The notes under the pieces are model-generated. The model was not told where the DNA came from. It saw only the letters and a list, made by a program, of their open reading frames with translations, and searched no databases. Below, one piece after another: positions 24,555-34,854 of a stretch of DNA of 64,000 nt. The position numbers were made by a program, and so were the translations under genes. The DNA is from a virus: positions 1 through 64,000 of the IMG/VR virus record IMGVR_UViG_3300030060_002738. One strand, 5' to 3'. Within the stretch, counting starts at the first letter, position 1; every line of letters starts with the position of its first letter.

Positions 24555-24962
24555 CTACTCTTCTTCTCCATGCAGGTAAACACCTGCCTTTATTTTGTCT
24601 AACATTTGTTGAGCAGAAGTAGGCTCATGATAGGAACTTCCCCAATAGGGGTCTAGTCTATCATCAGGAATCATATCCCAACTATCCGACATTGAATCCT
24701 CAAACGAAACGCTATCCACAAAGTCAGGATTCTTCAAAAGGAGAAGAGGCTCATGCCAATCTCCATCTTCCTGTGCTTGTTTGATTGCTTCATGCATCTC
24801 TTCTGCTTTATCATCAGGTAGTTCGACCCAATAGACCATAGCATGTCTCTGCCTGTTCAAACCTGCTCTCATTGAGATAGTCGCAGGAGCAGCACCTATC
24901 TCTTCGCATTCCATGAACGATTCTAATCCATGAGCATCTACTATTCCACAATAAGTCTTCAT
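24555..24962 (-). CDS. Hypothetical acidic protein
   Basis: 135 residues, acidic, with a Ser/Asp-rich stretch (FEDSMSDSWDMIPDD). Its ATG overlaps the stop of the JAMM gene by four bases, so it may be a partner or substrate. Not recognised. Confidence 0.6.
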   Translation of the reverse strand: MKTYCGIVDAHGLESFMECEEIGAAPATISMRAGLNRQRHAMVYWVELPDDKAEEMHEAIKQAQEDGDWHEPLLLLKNPDFVDSVSFEDSMSDSWDMIPDDRLDPYWGSSYHEPTSAQQMLDKIKAGVYLHGEEE

Positions 24963-25507
24963 TCCTCTTCACCGCCCAATACACCTTCTGCTGCTTTGAC
25001 CCACTCAGGTTTAGAAGGCTCTTGTTGATATATCGCATACTGAACTCTCTTTGCTATCTCACTATTGCAATCGTAGCAGATAAACTGGTTATCTCCAAGA
25101 ACCGTTGCACTCTCCATCATTCCCTTCCATGAATGAATAGTCTTCCAATCAGTGCCACTGAAGAAAGCCTGTCCAAACGGATGTGTGTGTATCCAGCATT
25201 TCAGTGGTATCTTCATACCACCTAGTTGCTCCTCTTGGTCTTTGAAACTCACAAAGCCAAACGTTCCCACACTAACATACAAGTCATCCTTGGCATCAAC
25301 AATCACTTGTACCTCTCTAGGAGAATCGAATGCATTCAGAGACTTGTTCCATATCACTGTGTAGAACGCCTCTGTATGATTGTTTGGGAAAGGATACTCA
25401 AACGGTATCTTACTGAACACCGTCTTGATATCCTCAATCCAATTCTCATCTACTATCTCTAGTCCTTCTATTCCTTTATTTTCATATTCTGTTTCATCTG
25501 TTTTCAT
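24959..25507 (-). CDS. JAMM/MPN+ metalloprotease (desampylase-like)
   Basis: 182 residues. His107-Thr-His109-Pro110, then Ser117 and Asp120, exactly match the zinc motif HxHPx6Sx2D of JAB1/MPN+ enzymes; Glu46 is a candidate for the conserved upstream Glu. These proteases cut isopeptide bonds or trim C-terminal extensions of ubiquitin-like proteins. An E1-like gene lies five genes upstream and a Ubl candidate ending GGV lies at 31598-31804. It might also act on host SAMP conjugates. GGAGGA precedes the start. Confidence 0.8.
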   Translation of the reverse strand: MKTDETEYENKGIEGLEIVDENWIEDIKTVFSKIPFEYPFPNNHTEAFYTVIWNKSLNAFDSPREVQVIVDAKDDLYVSVGTFGFVSFKDQEEQLGGMKIPLKCWIHTHPFGQAFFSGTDWKTIHSWKGMMESATVLGDNQFICYDCNSEIAKRVQYAIYQQEPSKPEWVKAAEGVLGGEEE

Positions 25508-25509
25508 TT

Positions 25510-25752
25510 TTATATTCCTCCCATTTGTTCTACTCTCATGTCTTGTTCGTTCTCAAACTCATGGTATGCTCTGTGTCCTGCTATGAACCCACCAGCATGT
25601 CTTTTCGTTCCTAAGAACTCCTCACCACAAACTGGACAAACGACCTTTACAATCATCGCCTGTTTGTAGTATCCATCTGTCGATATTATCGTCAGCATAT
25701 TTCCTATGTCTTCTTCGCTTATGTCGTCTATGTTTGCATCTTCTTTACTCAT
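25510..25752 (-). CDS. 80-residue C2H2-type zinc-finger protein
   Basis: CPVCGEEFLGTKRHAGGFIAGH then YH: CxxC followed by His residues in zinc-finger spacing. The N-terminus is acidic. The terminal GGI is encoded by the GGAGGA ribosome-binding site of the JAMM gene, so I do not read it as a ubiquitin-like tail. Confidence 0.6.
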   Translation of the reverse strand: MSKEDANIDDISEEDIGNMLTIISTDGYYKQAMIVKVVCPVCGEEFLGTKRHAGGFIAGHRAYHEFENEQDMRVEQMGGI

Positions 25753-26033
25753 GTTTTCACCACCATGTAATGTCGAAGTGATTTGATTGGTCTTGGTGGG
25801 ACTAACCGAGGTTCTTCGACTACAACCTCTACTTCTTCTATTTCCTTCTGTACCTCTTTGATGTCCATTCCCTTTTGCATGGGAAGAAGTACACTCCTTC
25901 TATACTGTTCCTTCCACATCACTTGAATACAGTCATTGCATAACCTTCTGCTATCTGCCAAGTGTTCAGGAACAGGCTCATCCTCTTTACCACAAAGAGT
26001 CTTTCCTAAAATCGAGAAATGAATATACTTCAT
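25749..26033 (-). CDS. Hypothetical protein with zinc pair and Glu/Val-rich segment
   Basis: 94 residues; LCGKED and LCNDCIQ give three Cys with a nearby His (EHLADSRRLC). A repetitive stretch EIEEVEVVVEEPRLVPP follows. Not recognised. ATGA-coupled to both neighbours. Confidence 0.55.
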   Translation of the reverse strand: MKYIHFSILGKTLCGKEDEPVPEHLADSRRLCNDCIQVMWKEQYRRSVLLPMQKGMDIKEVQKEIEEVEVVVEEPRLVPPRPIKSLRHYMVVKT

Positions 26034-26275
26034 TCCCCTTTCTCCTTGTATGCAGGATGCTTCTTCGGCAACCTGTGCAGTCTCTTCTCTATCTTGTTGT
26101 TAACAAATGATGCAATCTCATTAACACCATTCTTCCAACGCTTCTCTAACTCGCTATAATACTGGTCGCCTTTGTGTTGTAGCACCATCTTTTCTTCTAA
26201 TTCTGTTAAGTCTATTTTATCCATTATATATTTCAATACTTCATATTCAACATGTACCTTTGAACTCGCTCTCAT
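26030..26275 (-). CDS. Hypothetical helical protein
   Basis: 81 residues, predicted all-helical and basic at the C-terminus (EKRLHRLPKKHPAYKEKG). Not recognised. ATGA overlaps with neighbours. Confidence 0.55.
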   Translation of the reverse strand: MRASSKVHVEYEVLKYIMDKIDLTELEEKMVLQHKGDQYYSELEKRWKNGVNEIASFVNNKIEKRLHRLPKKHPAYKEKGE

Positions 26276-26439
26276 TCATCTTCACCTCTACATTTTTTAC
26301 ATGATAGATTTGTTTTACATCTACCACAAATCACTAATGCATCCTTCAGTGGAAGAGCAGCACCTGCACTATTCATATGACCTAAGAAGGTCTCAATTGG
26401 ATAGTGACAGGAACACTCTTCACAATCGCATTCTTTCAT
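26272..26439 (-). CDS. 55-residue Cys-rich zinc protein
   Basis: Begins MKECDCEECSCHYPIE and ends with VICGRCKTNLSCKKC: nine Cys and two His, enough for two zinc sites. The ATG overlaps the E1-like stop by ATGA and the stop overlaps the next ATG by ATGA. It directly follows the E1-like gene, so it may be part of that system. Confidence 0.65.
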   Translation of the reverse strand: MKECDCEECSCHYPIETFLGHMNSAGAALPLKDALVICGRCKTNLSCKKCRGEDE

Positions 26440-27032
26440 ATGTTTAACACCATCTTATCGATGACATCATCATTGTCGTTGAACCACTTCTGTATCCACT
26501 GTGACGCTACACCTGCAATCACGATGTTCATACAGTCAATTCCCTTTGGACTTCCATCCCAATCAGTCGCCTGACATGAGAAAGAACCCTCTTGACCAGC
26601 AAGAAAGGCATCCATGAGATTAGGGTCTATCTTGTAGGAAATTAATGCTGCATTTCGCCCCTGCGCTCGCAAATCTAGCCACTTAATCTTGGCTTCTGAC
26701 CCAAACCCCTGCCGATACAACAAACGCCTCACAGCAAGGTTATCCGCACAGCAGATTACCAAATGATAACCCTGTAACTGCTTCTCGGTTAGAACCCTGA
26801 ATGGCTCATCTCTTACTGTTCCACGATTATTAGTGTCGTAAACTTTGACAGCAAGAGTGGTTGCCTTGTTCTCCCCAATATCAGAGACATTAAAGTTCTG
26901 ATATCCTATGTTCTTTCTCTCAACACCATCGTCATCCCATAGTGTTATCTTGTATCCTAGTCTTTGGAGAAACTGAGTTAGAAAACTCCCTATTCCTCCT
27001 GCTCCAATTATCATTACTCTTCTATTTATCAT
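26436..27032 (-). CDS. E1/ThiF-like adenylyltransferase
   Basis: 198 residues from the ATG at 27032 (GGTGAT upstream). The Rossmann loop GAGGIGS (10-16), the acidic strand end WDDD (32-35), NIGYQNFNVSDIGENKA (41-57) and YHLVICCADN match ThiF/MoeB/E1 proteins; Tyr replaces the usual Arg before Gln in N-x-x-R-Q. E1 enzymes adenylate the C-terminal Gly of a ubiquitin-like protein. Candidate catalytic Cys residues lie at FSCQATD and IDCMN. The protein is shorter than MoeB (about 250). Confidence 0.8.
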   Translation of the reverse strand: MINRRVMIIGAGGIGSFLTQFLQRLGYKITLWDDDGVERKNIGYQNFNVSDIGENKATTLAVKVYDTNNRGTVRDEPFRVLTEKQLQGYHLVICCADNLAVRRLLYRQGFGSEAKIKWLDLRAQGRNAALISYKIDPNLMDAFLAGQEGSFSCQATDWDGSPKGIDCMNIVIAGVASQWIQKWFNDNDDVIDKMVLNI

Positions 27033-27261
27033 TTTCATCACCTATATCTATTATCCCATCTATTTGTTGTTGTTGATACTCATGCCAAGCATCGACTATC
27101 TCATGTGTTATTCCATCCATTGTCGCTCCGACAACGGAGATTGCGTCTTCTAGCACAGTTCTTCTTACTATATTCTTCAACTGTGGTAGACTTTCATACT
27201 CTTCAATGAACTTACTGAAGTGGTATTGCATTTTCTTTAGTGTGTCAATTACATCTTCCAT
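27022..27261 (-). CDS. Hypothetical helical protein
   Basis: 79 residues, helical, acidic C-terminus (GIIDIGDENDK). Overlaps the E1-like start by 11 bases and lies one base from the TFB gene. Not recognised. Confidence 0.55.
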   Translation of the reverse strand: MEDVIDTLKKMQYHFSKFIEEYESLPQLKNIVRRTVLEDAISVVGATMDGITHEIVDAWHEYQQQQIDGIIDIGDENDK

Positions 27262-27262
27262 C

Positions 27263-28180
27263 TTAATACGCTCCTGCTACAAAATCACTCACCGATAGAC
27301 TACACATGTCTTCCTTAGTCAAACCGAAGACCTCACACAATGCATGAAGGCTTACTCTCACTCCACTCGTTGATGCTGAACTTCCTGATGCATCGACTAA
27401 CTCTGCCTGTGTGACTTTGATATTCTCCATCTTTCCTGCAACCCAAAGACTCGCTATGATTAGGTTAGGAGAGAGACGCATTTGCTTAACTTTGTAGCAC
27501 TGCTCTATATGTTTTATCAACCGCAGTGCTTTCATTCTATACTCAGGGTCAATTCTTCTGTGTGATTCCAGTCTATCTATGATAGATATTGCTTCAGCCA
27601 TGATATTTCTATGAGTAAAGACTGAAGCGTTTCTGAAATGCTTTGCAATCCTCTTTGCCCAACGTGAGACATACTTACTCTCAACATACGAGAATTTGCT
27701 GTGTGTCTTTAGATTGACAGGTATCTGACTCTCCTTTAGTATGTAATAAGTCAAGGATGCTGCTCTTTGCTCAACTGTGCATCCTCTTAACACATGCTCT
27801 TCTTTCAATGACTTCAGGTATGTCTCAACCTTGTCCATGATACTCTTACTTGCTTTGTAGTTTGACATAATCATCCTTGACCTCGTAATTGTCTCTCTAT
27901 CTGCTTCGGTAAGAGAAGATGCCCAAACGTGCTGTCTTTTCATACGGCTAAACTGTGAGTTAGTGGGAGAGTATTGCCGAGGATAGCCCATGTATGAACC
28001 AAGTCTGTTTGTCACCTCATGTGTCTGTTGACCATCTCTGATTATAGATGTGGTCTCTTCAAACGGCCTGTGGTATAGAACTAAACCGCAGTCTCGACAT
28101 ATCATCTCGCCTATTGCATCGTTGAAGTAACTACTTTCACACTCACATTCGGGACACTTCATGTGCGCTTCTACTTCCAT
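27263..28180 (-). CDS. tfb: Transcription initiation factor TFB
   Basis: 305 residues, near-normal TFB length. N-terminal zinc ribbon (Cys9, Cys12, Cys28, Cys31), a B-reader/linker region with NRLGSYMGYPRQYS, then two cyclin folds (about 95-190 and 195-290) with helices such as LSPNLIIASLWVAGKM and VTQAELVDASGSSASTSGVR. It would bind TBP-DNA and recruit host RNA polymerase, so a viral copy could change promoter choice. It is strong evidence for an archaeal host. An ATG at 28162 is an alternative start. Confidence 0.92.
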   Translation of the reverse strand: MEVEAHMKCPECECESSYFNDAIGEMICRDCGLVLYHRPFEETTSIIRDGQQTHEVTNRLGSYMGYPRQYSPTNSQFSRMKRQHVWASSLTEADRETITRSRMIMSNYKASKSIMDKVETYLKSLKEEHVLRGCTVEQRAASLTYYILKESQIPVNLKTHSKFSYVESKYVSRWAKRIAKHFRNASVFTHRNIMAEAISIIDRLESHRRIDPEYRMKALRLIKHIEQCYKVKQMRLSPNLIIASLWVAGKMENIKVTQAELVDASGSSASTSGVRVSLHALCEVFGLTKEDMCSLSVSDFVAGAY

Positions 28181-29391
28181 ACCATCTTCTCCGTAAACTT
28201 AGCATTCTTGATATCCTTCTTCGGTATTCGGAAGGATGTCTTCTTTACATTCCTCAAAGTAGAGACCATCTTGGAAGCGTGTTTGTCGTTCTTCACCAAC
28301 ATCGCCCTTGTTGCTATTTGGTCTCCTGTTACGTTCTTGCTGTTGATGTCATCTATGCAGAACGGGCCTTCAGTCTTATCCATTGAACCATTGAAGAACA
28401 ATACCTTGCATCTTTGAGTACCTGCACTATTGTTGTTAGGATAAACCAACCAATCTCCTAGTTCTCCACTAACATGCATAGCAAAGTGGTATTTTCTTGA
28501 CTTTTCTGATACACTTGTTGTAGAAAACGGTGGTTTTCTTAAGTCTACTAGTGTAAACTCATCATAATTCTTATCCATGTCTTGAAGCAACTCAAATGCT
28601 CGCTCTTCTACAATCACACTCGTTCTGTTCTGCATCAACCATGATTTCATCAGTGCCTCTTCAGCATCTGTGATATGAGTATTGAACATATTATACCAAA
28701 GGTTGGCAGGACTGATATCAGCCCACTTCTTTGACCTCTTTGCTCCGTTTCTATAACAGTCAATGAACGTGTTAGCATCATCAAGAGGCAAAGAACCCCA
28801 AACATGCTCTGAAACCTCAAACGCAACTTCATCTCTACCAATCAAGGTAGTGTTAATCTTAACTTCAGTCTTGACACCGCCCTTGAAGAACCAATAAGGA
28901 CAACGGTTCTCAATAGCATACAAAATGTTGCTTGAGTAAGTCACGTTCCTGTCAATGTAGTTCTCCATTGCTTCACAGTCACGGTTCTGTCCCCCGAATG
29001 CTATAATTTTAGCAAGGGCCATTGCGACATCCACTTGATTCTTCTTTACTCCGTTCATATACAATGAAGAGCCATCCTTCCGCAACATTACAGAAGCATC
29101 ACCATTCTTGTATCGAAACGTAATCCAAGTCATCTCATTAGAATGAGAAGTTGGTGTTGTCTGAACAAACAGACGATACATGTTGTTTGCAAACTTGTTC
29201 CAGTATCTATTCTCATGGAACTTCTTCTTTGTTTCTTCGTTTTTCATCGAGAATTCTCTTTCACCATATTGGTTCGGGCTTCTAGTTAGTCTCGTAATAG
29301 CCCTACGATTTGACTTACAAAGGAATGTACTGTGGTCTGCCTCTATTTCTCTATCACTTCTTACTGTTGGTAAGTTTACTTTCATTTTCAT
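28171..29391 (-). CDS. Large hypothetical protein
   Basis: 406 residues from the ATG at 29391 (GGTGAT upstream). Alpha/beta composition, basic N-terminus, and conserved-looking segments such as WITFRYKNGDASVMLRKDG and KVLFFNGSMDKTEGPFCIDD. No catalytic motif recognised. It overlaps TFB by 10 bases. Confidence 0.6.
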   Translation of the reverse strand: MKMKVNLPTVRSDREIEADHSTFLCKSNRRAITRLTRSPNQYGEREFSMKNEETKKKFHENRYWNKFANNMYRLFVQTTPTSHSNEMTWITFRYKNGDASVMLRKDGSSLYMNGVKKNQVDVAMALAKIIAFGGQNRDCEAMENYIDRNVTYSSNILYAIENRCPYWFFKGGVKTEVKINTTLIGRDEVAFEVSEHVWGSLPLDDANTFIDCYRNGAKRSKKWADISPANLWYNMFNTHITDAEEALMKSWLMQNRTSVIVEERAFELLQDMDKNYDEFTLVDLRKPPFSTTSVSEKSRKYHFAMHVSGELGDWLVYPNNNSAGTQRCKVLFFNGSMDKTEGPFCIDDINSKNVTGDQIATRAMLVKNDKHASKMVSTLRNVKKTSFRIPKKDIKNAKFTEKMVWK

Positions 29392-29632
29392 TTTTATCAC
29401 CATTTCTTTCTAAATATAGCCTGTAATCGTACAGGTCTTTCAATGTTGCATCAGTTTGGATATCCGAATAACCCAAACGAATGTAGTATCTTATGTGTTT
29501 GATGAGGGAGGGAGTTCTACGACTCCCATCCCTTACTTCACCAAACATTCTTTTTGTTGTTTCCTTTGCCCCACTGTTAATCATTGATTCAACAACTTCA
29601 TCCTCAATCTTCAACAGTTGCGCCTTGTTCAT
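29354..29632 (-). CDS. Hypothetical helical protein
   Basis: 92 residues. Contains DGSRRTPSLIKHIRYYIRLGYSD, which could be a small HTH-like segment, and a Lys/Asn/Glu-rich tail. Its ATG overlaps the RNR stop by four bases. Confidence 0.55.
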   Translation of the reverse strand: MNKAQLLKIEDEVVESMINSGAKETTKRMFGEVRDGSRRTPSLIKHIRYYIRLGYSDIQTDATLKDLYDYRLYLERNGDKNENESKLTNSKK

Positions 29633-31515
29633 ATTTCACATACTCCGCCAGCACAGGCAAGTTCGCCCTGCAAGTCAGTATTATCTTCTGTCTCGATAAC
29701 TTCTTCCAAGTTTATCTCGGTTAGAAGGTTCAGCATAGTTTCATAATGCTTCTTGCTTATCGGTTCGTGTGGTGCTTGTTCATATGCACCACCATCATAG
29801 GGCAATACGGATAGACCATTGTAGAAGTCTCTGTTCTTCCACATCCAGTTCCTTACGTCATTCCACTCATCATCACGAATGTTAACTGTCGCAGATACAT
29901 TGTGAGTGTTGACTCCTCTGTTATGTCCTGAGACAACCCAATCTACTGAGACTTTCTTCACTCTCTCAAGCATCTCCAATGCTGACTCGTCTCTTGTTAT
30001 TGAGTCACCAGCAGGTGTCTTCTGTGGTATTGAGATGACTGCCTGTGTAGGACTCATCTTATCATCCTCTACCAAATCAGGGAACTTCTCAATGAGGTAT
30101 CGATAGATAGCCTCAGTCTTGAGAACTCTTATTCTCCTGATGTAGTATTGAGACCACCAAGCATGAATGCCTGATGATGTTCCCATAACTAGACTGGTAG
30201 TTCCAGCAGGTTTGACACAAGTGATTCTCGCTGCCGTCTTGATACCTAATGCACTAGCAATAACCTCATTGGTCTTCCTTGCTTTCTCAGCAGCGAGTTC
30301 CATATCCAAGTCTAGAACTCCACCACTTGCTATGCCTGTCATTGACACACCAAGTAGAGCATCCTTCTCTGAAGTCTTCTTCCATACTTCCCTTAGATAG
30401 TGAAAGTCAGTGTAAGATGCTTGTAGTGTTCCTAAGAAGGCTGCTGCCTTCACTCTCTGATTAAGTTCCCTCTGTGTTCTAACATCGGAAACATTTACCT
30501 CTGTCAAGTTACAGAACTGATAGGGTCTAAGTGCTATCTCGCAGCAGGGGTTTGTTCCCCAATCCTTGTCATTCGTGAAGTAGAAACCGGGTTCTCCTGT
30601 TCCCGATTTCCGAACTCTCTTCCATAGATTGTTGAAGAAGTCCCTCTTAATTCTGTGTCGTAGTAGAACCACTGAGTTGTTTGCTCTTGACCTCTGAGCA
30701 TTTCTCTCCCAAAAGTGACCTGACTTGCAGGTTATCATCTCGTCATCATCTGCACTGAACAACGAAATCATCGCTGCTCTTCTTATTCCACCTGCTAATA
30801 CTGCATCAGCAATGTGACACAGAATGTCGTGGACTTCTATTGGTCGAAGTTTGTCACCATTATGCTTGTTAGATAGTATTCCCTCTACCTTCACCAAGCA
30901 TTCCTTCAATGGTTGAGGGCCGGGTGCTTTACCACCACTAGTCTTCAATGGTGTTCCCTTTGGTCTAATGTCTGAGTAGTCAAATCTGACTGTTGTTGCT
31001 CTCTTACCTATGTAGGACTCAAACAATACCTTGACTGCATCAGCCCATCCCTCAATAGAATCACCTATCAAATGTCGATAGGTTCTCTTTGGGTTTGGTA
31101 GTCTAATCTCAGGCAGTTGCTCAACGTGATGATACTGCACTGAGTATCCTACGCCTGTGCCTCCTAGCAATAGGAACATTGCCTCTGAGAATGATAGATA
31201 GTGATTGATTGGCATGTAAGCACAATTGTAAACACGGTTAGGTGATAGTTCAATCGGCTTACCTGCAAACTGCATAGACCTCATTGAAGGTAGTACCTTC
31301 TTCGGGATAACGAAGTTGTCATAGACATCATTGATTCTATCAACTAATACGGACTTGTCATACGACAGGTCAGACTTCTCAATAGTATTGAGATGCATCT
31401 GCCTGTTTCTCTCACAAATTTCTTCCCAAGTCTCTTTTCTTTGTTCTGCTTCTTTCCACTTTGCATACTTCATATGCACAGTGATATCTGATAATATCTC
31501 TTGTTGTATTTCCAT
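29629..31515 (-). CDS. nrdJ: Class II (B12-dependent) ribonucleotide reductase
   Basis: 628 residues. Cys98 in VYNCAYMP, the NPCCEI motif, NLTEVNVSD, and a C-terminal CAGGVC pair (621 and 626) that passes electrons; the layout matches the monomeric adenosylcobalamin-dependent RTPR family. No small subunit or glycyl-radical site is present. It makes deoxynucleotides for replication and needs cobalamin from the host. No thioredoxin-like gene is visible nearby. GGAGAT precedes the start. Confidence 0.9.
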   Translation of the reverse strand: MEIQQEILSDITVHMKYAKWKEAEQRKETWEEICERNRQMHLNTIEKSDLSYDKSVLVDRINDVYDNFVIPKKVLPSMRSMQFAGKPIELSPNRVYNCAYMPINHYLSFSEAMFLLLGGTGVGYSVQYHHVEQLPEIRLPNPKRTYRHLIGDSIEGWADAVKVLFESYIGKRATTVRFDYSDIRPKGTPLKTSGGKAPGPQPLKECLVKVEGILSNKHNGDKLRPIEVHDILCHIADAVLAGGIRRAAMISLFSADDDEMITCKSGHFWERNAQRSRANNSVVLLRHRIKRDFFNNLWKRVRKSGTGEPGFYFTNDKDWGTNPCCEIALRPYQFCNLTEVNVSDVRTQRELNQRVKAAAFLGTLQASYTDFHYLREVWKKTSEKDALLGVSMTGIASGGVLDLDMELAAEKARKTNEVIASALGIKTAARITCVKPAGTTSLVMGTSSGIHAWWSQYYIRRIRVLKTEAIYRYLIEKFPDLVEDDKMSPTQAVISIPQKTPAGDSITRDESALEMLERVKKVSVDWVVSGHNRGVNTHNVSATVNIRDDEWNDVRNWMWKNRDFYNGLSVLPYDGGAYEQAPHEPISKKHYETMLNLLTEINLEEVIETEDNTDLQGELACAGGVCEI

Positions 31516-31597
31516 AAATTCATCTCCTTACGAGTTAAACATGGGCATTGCACCCACTCGGCAGTCAATCTAACCACTGCTAAGACTATCTACGATT
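31516..31597 (-). other. Short gap between Ubl and RNR genes
   Basis: 82 bases. A 34-codon GTG-started frame (with a CPC motif) enters the RNR gene here, but it overlaps the RNR start heavily and lacks support. The gap shows that the Gly-Gly end of the Ubl candidate is not part of the next gene's ribosome-binding site. Confidence 0.4.
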
Positions 31598-31804
31598 TCA
31601 GACTCCGCCAACAACGGCTTCTTGCAATCGAACTTCGTTGACTGTATCCCAATCAACATCAGGGATGTTCTCCCTCATTACCATGTCGCCATCGATGAAC
31701 ACCCAATGTGTAGGGTGGTCAGTTATCTGCTCAATGACGCTGGCTGCGTTCACTTCCATTTCTGTGTGTCCTCTTTCATTTGCTATATACAATTTCATTT
31801 TCAT
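31598..31804 (-). CDS. Ubiquitin-like (ThiS/MoaD-type) protein candidate ending in GGV
   Basis: 68 residues from the ATG at 31804 (AAGGAGG four bases upstream). The order is beta hairpin (MKLYIANERGHTEMEV), helix (ASVIEQITDH), strand (HWVFIDGDMVM), then a last strand NEVRLQEAVVGGV. The length and the final AVVGG resemble ThiS/MoaD, whose C-terminal Gly-Gly is adenylated by E1-like enzymes. The extra Val after Gly-Gly would need trimming, as a JAMM enzyme could do. Both enzyme types are encoded downstream in the same operon. Fold is an inference. Confidence 0.6.
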   Translation of the reverse strand: MKMKLYIANERGHTEMEVNAASVIEQITDHPTHWVFIDGDMVMRENIPDVDWDTVNEVRLQEAVVGGV

Positions 31805-34118: not shown

Positions 34119-34285
34119 TCTTCTTCAATTCCATGCATTGCCAACCACTCACCATAGTCAGGCTCACACCTACATAGACAAGGGACAGGTTCTTTCTCCC
34201 CATCTGCGGTTTGTAAAACTGCCGTTCCAGTTCCGTGACACACACTGCATATCTCTTCTTCTCTAGTTATCTTTACAATTCTCAT
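34115..34285 (-). CDS. 56-residue DnaJ-type zinc protein
   Basis: CSVCHGTGTAVLQ is a CxxCxGxG element as in DnaJ zinc centres, followed by PCLCRC. One zinc site is likely. ATGA overlaps on both sides. Function unknown. Confidence 0.65.
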   Translation of the reverse strand: MRIVKITREEEICSVCHGTGTAVLQTADGEKEPVPCLCRCEPDYGEWLAMHGIEEE

Positions 34286-34854
34286 ATTAATCCCAACCTC
34301 GTTAGGAAAGCATTGCTTTCTTGTTTATATTCAAACGACTTTCTCAAGTAGTGGTCTTCAGGCCACCAACTCGGTTCTTCTCTTCTCTTCCAAGTAGCGA
34401 ATCTCCACTTGTCATCAAGATAGTATTGACGATACTTCTCGATAGTCGTCATGTCATCAAATCCATCTGCCTTTCTACACTCCATGTGAGGAGAGATAGC
34501 GATGGCGAATGTCGTCAACCCATCATCAGGAAGAAGCATCTCTGCCTCATCCATCTGAGCGGAATAACGATTCATCTGAACTTCGACTTGATGGATTCGG
34601 TCATACCTGAGTGTATACTCACGACACAAAGCGTAAGTGTGATTACGCAACCATCGGAAGTTCTGTCTTGTCTCCCTAGCCCAAATAGTGCAAGGGTGAT
34701 TCAACATCACAGGTCTCCAACCTGCTTCCAAACCAAGGTAGTCCACGATGGTAAACAGCATCTGCAAACTCTCAGTCGGCATCTTGACTACATGCTTATC
34801 CAACATCATCTCAGCACTCTTGGTAGGGCAATCATCTAAACAGAATATGTTCAT
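34282..34854 (-). CDS. Pyrimidine-dimer DNA glycosylase-like protein (Pyr_excise family)
   Basis: 190 residues. MNIFCLDDCPTKSAEMMLDKH with KHVVKMPTESLQML, NHPCTIWARETRQNFRWLRNH, LCREYTLRYDRIHQ and YRQYYLDDKW match a phage family annotated as Pyr_excise. Members are thought to cut DNA at UV dimers, which would suit a surface-ocean virus. The assignment is from memory of the family pattern; activity is not proven. Confidence 0.6.
   Translation of the reverse strand: MNIFCLDDCPTKSAEMMLDKHVVKMPTESLQMLFTIVDYLGLEAGWRPVMLNHPCTIWARETRQNFRWLRNHTYALCREYTLRYDRIHQVEVQMNRYSAQMDEAEMLLPDDGLTTFAIAISPHMECRKADGFDDMTTIEKYRQYYLDDKWRFATWKRREEPSWWPEDHYLRKSFEYKQESNAFLTRLGLI

What the first reader, a model, noticed from the sequence alone, without database searches (positions are those of the whole stretch)
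24959..31804. A dispersed ubiquitin-like set: Ubl ending GGV, E1-like enzyme and JAMM protease
The protein at 31598-31804 has ThiS/MoaD-like size and strand order and ends AVVGGV; an E1/ThiF-like enzyme is at 26436-27032; a JAMM protease with exact HxHPx6Sx2D is at 24959-25507. All are on one strand in the same operon region. The Val after Gly-Gly would need removal by a protease. A complete conjugation or sulfur-transfer set in an archaeal virus could tag viral or host proteins, or counter a host SAMP system.
Basis: partly seen in the sequence, partly recalled or inferred. Interest (0 to 1): 0.85.

Follow-up and report, generated by a model that had tools for sequence, protein, structure and literature searches.

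The report
Ubiquitin-like tagging set in archaeal virus
A virus of ocean archaea carries its own ubiquitin-like protein with the enzyme that activates it and a matching protease, and the viruses' likely hosts turn out to have a related system with ubiquitin-like proteins strung together like polyubiquitin, so both sides of the infection may be able to tag proteins.

Summary
All three genes exist as described, on one strand. The 68-aa protein is predicted as a β-grasp Ubl (pLDDT 87.6). Its Gly-Gly is invariant in 81 distinct viral homologues, encoded by 12 synonymous codon pairs, and is followed by a variable 0-3 residue tail. The E1 (ThiF, 1e-18) and JAMM (HxHPx6SxxD plus a conserved Glu) are intact. 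Ubl, E1 and JAMM co-occur in fixed order in 91 of 91 non-redundant uncut viral loci and in 13 of 13 contigs over 80 kb chosen only by terminase. A fourth gene, 28171-29403, has one invariant Cys and is equally constant. Unexpectedly, Poseidoniales (Marine Group II) chromosomes carry the homologous system: Ubl with E1-JAMM, including genes with 2-3 head-to-tail Ubl repeats ending in Gly-Gly, E1-JAMM fusions and one Ubl-Ubl-E1 fusion. The viral E1s form one clade next to those E1s. Best reading: a virus-borne branch of a Marine Group II Ubl system. JAMM exposes Gly-Gly, E1 activates it, and the product is probably conjugation to proteins. Conjugation rather than sulfur transfer, and the targets, are untested.

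The parts
31598..31804 (-). Ubl: 68-aa ubiquitin-like protein; Gly66-Gly67 codons at 31604-31609, one-residue tail (Val) at 31601-31603
   Evidence: ORF; predicted strand-strand-helix-strand-strand-helix-strand, pLDDT 87.6; top Foldseek hits ISG15, SUMO, ubiquitin, Mth1743, weak E 8e-3; Gly-Gly invariant
26436..27032 (-). E1-like ThiF-family adenylyltransferase; GxGGxG at 26988-27005, invariant Cys (SCQ) codon at 26574-26576
   Evidence: Pfam ThiF 1e-18; full-length profile match to PRTRC ThiF, 99.7% probability; one viral clade next to Poseidoniales E1s
24959..25507 (-). JAMM/JAB metalloprotease; HxHPx6SxxD at 25148-25189, conserved upstream Glu65 codon at 25313-25315
   Evidence: Prok-JAB hit in 18/18 members; AMSH and Rpn11 by profile; Foldseek hits Caldiarchaeum Rpn11, STAMBP, RPN11, PfJAMM1 among cytidine deaminases; motif invariant in virus alignment
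28171..29403 (-). candidate fourth component ('CID protein'), 410 aa, unknown fold; invariant Cys349 codon at 28357-28359 in a GPICIDN...GDQ...R...ND motif
   Evidence: present in 91/91 relatives; homologous C-terminal domain encoded directly upstream of Ubl-E1-JAMM in Poseidoniales contigs; no Pfam or PDB match
27263..28180 (-). divergent TFIIB-like factor (TFB) always encoded between the CID protein and the E1; linked neighbour, membership in the system not shown
   Evidence: Zn_Ribbon_TF 3.6e-6 and TFIIB repeat; 91/91 relatives
29629..31515 (-). adenosylcobalamin ribonucleotide reductase between Ubl and the CID protein; judged not part of the system
   Evidence: phrog_367 2e-129; found in only 63/91 relatives that all have the Ubl set

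Best explanation
The three genes encode one pathway: a virus-borne branch of a ubiquitin-like modification system native to Marine Group II archaea (Poseidoniales). Steps: (1) the Ubl is made as a precursor with 0-3 residues after Gly-Gly; (2) the JAMM protease removes the tail; (3) the E1 adenylates the exposed Gly-Gly and probably loads it onto its single invariant Cys; (4) the Ubl is passed, perhaps through the Cys-bearing protein at 28171-29403, to lysines of viral or host proteins; (5) the JAMM can also reverse this. Shown here: the components, their folds or motifs, invariance of the active residues, co-occurrence, and homology to a host system. Inferred: steps 2-5. Least certain are the last acceptor (protein rather than sulfur) and the targets. 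Confidence refers to steps 1-3 plus protein conjugation as the output.
For: Fold: beta-grasp prediction with a flexible C-terminal tail; Foldseek top hits are ISG15, SUMO, ubiquitin and Mth1743. Gly-Gly in 81/81 distinct sequences, 12 synonymous codon pairs in 96 distinct genes, 30 different tails of 0-3 residues: selection on Gly-Gly but not on the tail. E1: nucleotide loop, ATP-site Lys/Asp and Cys151 invariant. JAMM residues invariant. Co-occurrence 91/91 and 13/13 contigs over 80 kb chosen only by terminase. Host genomes: E1 and Ubl co-occur 34 both / 40 neither / 5 one only of 79, Fisher 3e-16 (not corrected for phylogeny); E1-JAMM fusions and a Ubl-Ubl-E1 fusion; poly-Ubl genes with Gly-Gly at the junctions, which is expected for a modifier precursor. 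Precedent: Caldiarchaeum Rpn11/JAMM trims pro-ubiquitin to Gly-Gly and the E1 works only on the trimmed form (PMC5654768). No TtuA/NcsA-type PP-loop enzyme in the 98-kb record.
Against: No recognisable E2 (PF00179 absent) and no E3 profile, so transfer to protein is unproven. The E1 is short (~196 aa). The usual Arg of NLxRQ is Tyr in the virus and His in the host. Foldseek E-values are modest (8e-3 for the Ubl, 7e-3 for the best JAMM-family hit) and TM-scores normalised to the query are below 0.5. Ubl and JAMM match no family above cut-off. A sulfur-carrier role is not excluded; host sulfurtransferases could supply that step.
Confidence: 0.68

Rival explanations
1. Sulfur relay: the Ubl is a ThiS/MoaD-like sulfur carrier. 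E1 adenylation is followed by thiocarboxylation, and the sulfur goes to a tRNA, a cofactor or a cysteine precursor; JAMM only matures the carrier or releases a product from it.
For: The fold and E1 are shared with ThiS/ThiF and MoaD/MoeB. Archaeal SAMPs are known to do both jobs. The B12-dependent RNR in the operon shows metabolic cargo.
Against: No PP-loop ATP_bind_3 enzyme in the record. The E1 lacks an invariant CxxC pair. Iyer et al. 2006 note that thiamine/Moco operons never contain a JAB gene (PMC1779556). Head-to-tail Ubl repeats in hosts suit a modifier better than a sulfur carrier. Rhodanese and IscS were not searched for.
Confidence: 0.17
2. Counter-defence (can overlap with the main reading): the host's homologous Ubl system is antiviral, as Bil and CBASS Cap2/Cap3 are in bacteria. 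The virus uses its own Ubl, E1 and JAMM as decoys or as a deconjugating enzyme to blunt it.
For: A homologous system is present in about half of sampled host-order genomes (36/79 Ubl, 37/79 specific E1), a patchy spread. Bacterial Ubl conjugation is anti-phage (PMC10097602). Borgs are proposed to use many JAMM de-SAMPylases this way (PMC12660748).
Against: A JAMM alone would suffice; keeping an intact Ubl and E1 points to active modification. The host cassette neighbours in the contigs checked are metabolic genes (enolase, RNR), not defence genes. PADLOC gives only generic E1-E2 hits to the E1.
Confidence: 0.25
3. Unlinked neighbours: three unrelated genes kept close in a compact genome.
For: Neighbouring genes such as DNA ligase are also syntenic.
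Against: RNR, lying between them, was not found in 28/91 relatives while Ubl, E1 and JAMM are all present. E1-JAMM and Ubl-Ubl-E1 fusions in hosts. The E1 and Ubl co-occur across host genomes.
Confidence: 0.03

Closest known systems
Poseidoniales (Marine Group II) chromosomal Ubl/poly-Ubl, E1 and JAMM genes (found here; no description found in the library searched)
   Same: Homologous Ubl (Gly-Gly plus short tail), E1 (SCQ Cys, DLR...GR), JAMM, and in six contigs the CID protein directly upstream of the Ubl
   Different: Host Ubl is often a 2-3 repeat precursor and may lie away from the E1-JAMM pair; some E1-JAMM fusions; viral E1s are a separate, well-supported clade
Archaeal SAMP system (SAMP1-3, UbaA, HvJAMM1/2)
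   Same: Beta-grasp modifier with Gly-Gly, one E1, JAMM protease, no E2 needed
   Different: Ubl matches no SAMP/MoaD/ThiS profile; E1 far below the UbaA model cut-off (41.7 vs 450 bits)
PRTRC plasmid system (protein A = JAB, B, C = Ubl-sized protein, ThiF)
   Same: PRTRC ThiF is the best-scoring NCBIfam model for the E1 (8e-15, below cut-off); full-length profile match, Cys aligned; similar gene logic
   Different: Ubl and JAMM do not align with PRTRC C and A; the PRTRC C proteins read end in single-Gly tails such as GTKG; no PRTRC B found
Caldiarchaeum ubiquitin operon (Ub, E1, E2, srfp, Rpn11)
   Same: Archaeal modifier with tail after Gly-Gly removed by a JAMM (PMC5654768); Rpn11 is a profile and fold match to the viral JAMM
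   Different: No E2 or RING-like E3 recognised here; Ubl is not close to ubiquitin in sequence
Bil and CBASS Cap2/Cap3 anti-phage Ubl systems
   Same: E1 ATP-site similarity to Cap2 and to the 9egc ThiF-type protein; E1 plus JAB logic
   Different: Found in a virus, not a defence island; no E2 domain fused to the E1
Lambda-type phage tail genes (TAPI Ubl, TAPK JAB; PMC1779556)
   Same: Virus-coded Ubl and JAB
   Different: Those are tail-assembly genes without an E1; this set lies in the replication/transcription cluster

Membership tests
Ubiquitin-like modifier system (Ubl + E1 + JAMM) | small beta-grasp protein with C-terminal Gly-Gly | tested here: met
Ubiquitin-like modifier system (Ubl + E1 + JAMM) | ThiF-fold E1 with nucleotide loop and conserved Cys | tested here: met
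Ubiquitin-like modifier system (Ubl + E1 + JAMM) | JAMM protease with zinc ligands and Glu | tested here: met
   predicted structure, fold hits
Ubiquitin-like modifier system (Ubl + E1 + JAMM) | isopeptide attachment to protein lysines | not testable with these tools
   needs biochemistry or proteomics
Ubiquitin-like modifier system (Ubl + E1 + JAMM) | E2 enzyme (not needed in SAMP-type systems) | tested here: inconclusive
   UQ_con absent; the 28171 protein has an invariant Cys but no family or PDB match
SAMP system | Ubl of the SAMP/MoaD/ThiS families | tested here: not met
   no such match in Pfam or NCBIfam in 16 members
SAMP system | E1 orthologous to UbaA | tested here: not met
   NF047750 41.7 bits against cut-off 450
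PRTRC system | PRTRC ThiF (TIGR03736) above cut-off | tested here: not met
   54.8 bits against 144.75, though homologous over the full length
PRTRC system | PRTRC C and A homologues | tested here: not met
   hhalign probability 0.1% or less for both, with few reference sequences
Poseidoniales Ubl-E1-JAMM family (defined here) | homologous Ubl, E1, JAMM and CID protein; E1 next to the host clade | tested here: met
   support for the joint virus-host clade is moderate (96/58)
Magroviruses (Magrovirales) | opposed replication and virion gene clusters with split PolB, RFC-S, ligase, TFB, as described for Aoguangviridae (PMC10768690) | tested here: met
   formal taxonomy not run, the reference genome ON649702 is not held

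The most novel reading that the evidence does not exclude
A complete virus-borne ubiquitin-like conjugation and deconjugation cascade, in which the invariant-Cys protein at 28171-29403 is a new kind of transfer enzyme, used to re-tag host or viral proteins in conflict with a homologous poly-Ubl system of the host.
Probability: 0.22. Interest if true: 0.95.

Novelty: new variant of a known kind. Interest (0 to 1): 0.82.

Why it matters
No virus making its own ubiquitin-like modifier together with both its activating enzyme and its protease was found for archaea in the papers searched. Here the set is a core feature of a widespread marine virus lineage. The same search exposes a system in Poseidoniales, abundant surface-ocean archaea: repeat precursors like polyubiquitin genes, plus E1-JAMM and Ubl-Ubl-E1 fusions. 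That gives a compact, expressible set for asking how E2-less Ubl conjugation works, whether archaeal Ubl systems act in virus-host conflict, and how polyubiquitin-type genes arise.

Tried and rejected
UBL and JAMM in the phages collection by tblastn: no match. The UBL profile in genome contigs gave no relative, because the pattern was too specific; the E1 route then revealed the host system. PRTRC membership was tested and rejected for the Ubl and JAMM. PRTRC B was searched among conserved neighbours: none. E2 by PF00179: none. I considered the 28171 protein an E2 because its ICID resembles the ICLD of E2 active sites (from memory); A4 and A5 profiles against the PDB, and A5 members against Pfam, found nothing, so this stays a guess; a degenerate SWIM-like domain is another untested possibility. 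RNR as a partner rejected (63/91). Terminase-chosen contigs without the set: 15 of 36. Fourteen are shorter than 70 kb and probably fragments (13 of them also lack PolB; G009 has PolB and terminase at its two ends, so the missing stretch would lie beyond them). G008 (76.8 kb, divergent PolB) lacks the whole module, including the 28171 gene, in the stretch read. The L260 JAMM row in alignment A8 was taken in the wrong frame and is ignored.
Full report
Setting. The window is part of a 98,040-bp IMG/VR virus record. It has a minus-strand replication and transcription cluster and a plus-strand virion cluster. It encodes a split family-B polymerase, an RFC-like clamp loader, an ATP-dependent DNA ligase, a TFIIB-like factor and a terminase. 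This matches the gene set published for Aoguangviridae and other magroviruses of Marine Group II archaea (PMC10768690), so I treat it as a magrovirus relative. Formal placement was not possible; the reference genome is not held.

Observation. The Ubl (31598-31804), E1 (26436-27032) and JAMM (24959-25507) genes are present as described, all on the minus strand. The E1 is a clear ThiF protein (Pfam 1e-18). The JAMM carries HxHPx6SxxD. Its single-sequence Pfam score is below cut-off, but all 18 members scanned hit Prok-JAB, and the family profile finds AMSH and Caldiarchaeum Rpn11 in the PDB. Its predicted structure (pLDDT 83.2) matches JAMM proteins and cytidine deaminases, with modest scores.

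The Ubl. No sequence family recognises it. AlphaFold2 on 16 window and virus rows gives strand-strand-helix-strand-strand-helix-strand with a disordered last three residues (pLDDT 87.6). The top Foldseek matches are ISG15, SUMO, ubiquitin and the archaeal Mth1743 (best E 8e-3, TM-scores below 0.5, so fold class rather than close kin). In 81 distinct viral homologues the C-terminus always has Gly-Gly. Across 96 distinct gene sequences the two glycines use 12 codon combinations, while what follows is 0-3 residues in 30 different forms, with 12 genes ending at Gly-Gly itself. Strong selection on Gly-Gly with a free tail is what a modifier precursor should show.

Co-occurrence. From the E1, 22 virus loci were fetched. 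Of 160 fetched stretches, some from the same contig, 133 hold all three genes. In the rest the stretch or contig ends before the missing gene is expected (coordinates). In 91 non-redundant loci chosen for holding all three, TFB and the 28171 gene are also always found, whereas RNR is found in only 63. Gene order is fixed in the examples inspected, with small local shuffles of other genes. As an independent denominator, 36 long contigs were chosen by terminase alone: Ubl 21, E1 the same 21, JAMM 20 (the exception, G006, ends 423 bases after the E1). All 13 contigs longer than 80 kb have all three. One contig (G008) lacks the whole module in the stretch read.

Active residues. Invariant in the E1 family are the glycine-rich loop, Asp and Lys of the ATP site, Asp95, and Cys151 in SCQ. 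Profile alignment puts this Cys on the SC of PRTRC ThiF over a full-length match. Departures from the canon: the Arg of NLxRQ is Tyr (His in hosts), and there is no invariant CxxC zinc pair. In the JAMM family Glu65, both His, Ser and Asp are invariant in the virus alignment; Glu and the motif also hold in the correctly framed host proteins.

Unexpected host system. Scanning bacterial and archaeal genomes with the E1 profile returned Poseidoniales contigs with E1 followed by JAMM. In five of them (L268, L279, L281, L315, L318) the order is CID protein, Ubl ending VGG plus one residue, E1, and JAMM where the contig continues (in L318 a second CID-like gene lies between Ubl and E1). A sixth appears in G059 (L347/L367). 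In L268 and L315 the neighbours are enolase and ribonucleotide reductase, with an aminotransferase in L315, so these look like chromosomal loci rather than viral ones. Searching 79 genomes of the order, 36 have the Ubl and 37 a specific E1 at E below 1e-40; 34 have both, 40 neither (Fisher 3e-16, not phylogenetically corrected). In a sample of 145 genomes from the phylum, every Ubl hit falls in genomes already drawn from that order. Several hosts have two or three Ubl repeats head to tail in one ORF, with Gly-Gly at most junctions, as in polyubiquitin genes; three genomes have altered AG ends (L358, L361, L364). Two genomes have E1-JAMM fusions next to the Ubl, and one has Ubl-Ubl-E1 in one ORF. 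Such fusions are independent evidence that the three act together.

Origin. In a maximum-likelihood tree the viral E1s form one clade (100/99; one MAG contig labelled Altibacter, L259, sits inside and carries the viral gene order, so it is probably misbinned). Their nearest group is the archaeal E1s, with moderate support (96/58), apart from PRTRC and bacterial ThiF/MoeB E1s. One old exchange between host and virus lineages is the simplest reading; the direction is not resolved.

Mechanism. By analogy with Caldiarchaeum, where Rpn11 trims pro-ubiquitin and E1 activates only the trimmed form (PMC5654768), I infer JAMM maturation, E1 adenylation, transfer to protein lysines, and JAMM reversal. 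In Haloferax, E1 and a JAMM, with proteasomal ATPases, are needed for turnover of a SAMP2-tagged transcription factor, TBP2 (PMC4895103). The constant TFB neighbour makes host transcription factors a reasonable first place to look, but that is speculation. The 28171 protein, with one invariant Cys conserved from virus to host cassette, is the best candidate for a transfer or adaptor component; its fold is unknown.

Limits. No biochemical step is shown. Sulfur transfer is not excluded. The viral genomes and most of the host genomes are metagenomic. The literature library is partial: the original magrovirus paper is not held, so 'not described before' means not found in the papers searched.

Noticed in passing
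L343, L354, L356, L357, L359, L365 (Poseidoniales genomes): Genes with three head-to-tail Ubl repeats, each ending in Gly-Gly, a polyubiquitin-like arrangement in archaea; others have two repeats.
   Followed up: partly
L355:1369-2649; L348:1702-3012; L353:1809-3014: A Ubl-Ubl-E1 fusion and two E1-JAMM fusions in Poseidoniales genomes.
   Followed up: partly
L358, L361, L364: Poly-Ubl genes whose Gly-Gly is replaced by AG at both repeats, perhaps a decayed or altered modifier.
   Followed up: no
L259 (NZTP01000016.1): Contig assigned to an Altibacter MAG is magrovirus-like (viral E1 clade, viral gene order), so probably misbinned.
   Followed up: partly
window 27263-28180: The TFB is much more divergent between relatives (24-54% identity) than its neighbours, suggesting fast evolution.
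   Followed up: no
L265:5767-8486 (Methanoperedens contig): A protein with a CID-like C-terminus followed at once by an E1, with no recognisable Ubl; may be a Borg or another mobile element.
   Followed up: no
L260-L264, L266: A small (~80 aa) apparently helical protein is encoded right after JAMM in several Poseidoniales E1-JAMM pairs; possible extra component.
   Followed up: no
L244:6259-8657 (crAss001 gp77-gp76): A ThiF-like protein next to a predicted metalloprotease in crAss-like phages; may be another phage Ubl set.
   Followed up: no
window 34282-34854: Pyrimidine-dimer glycosylase-like DNA-binding protein (Pyr_excise, phrog_624).
   Followed up: no
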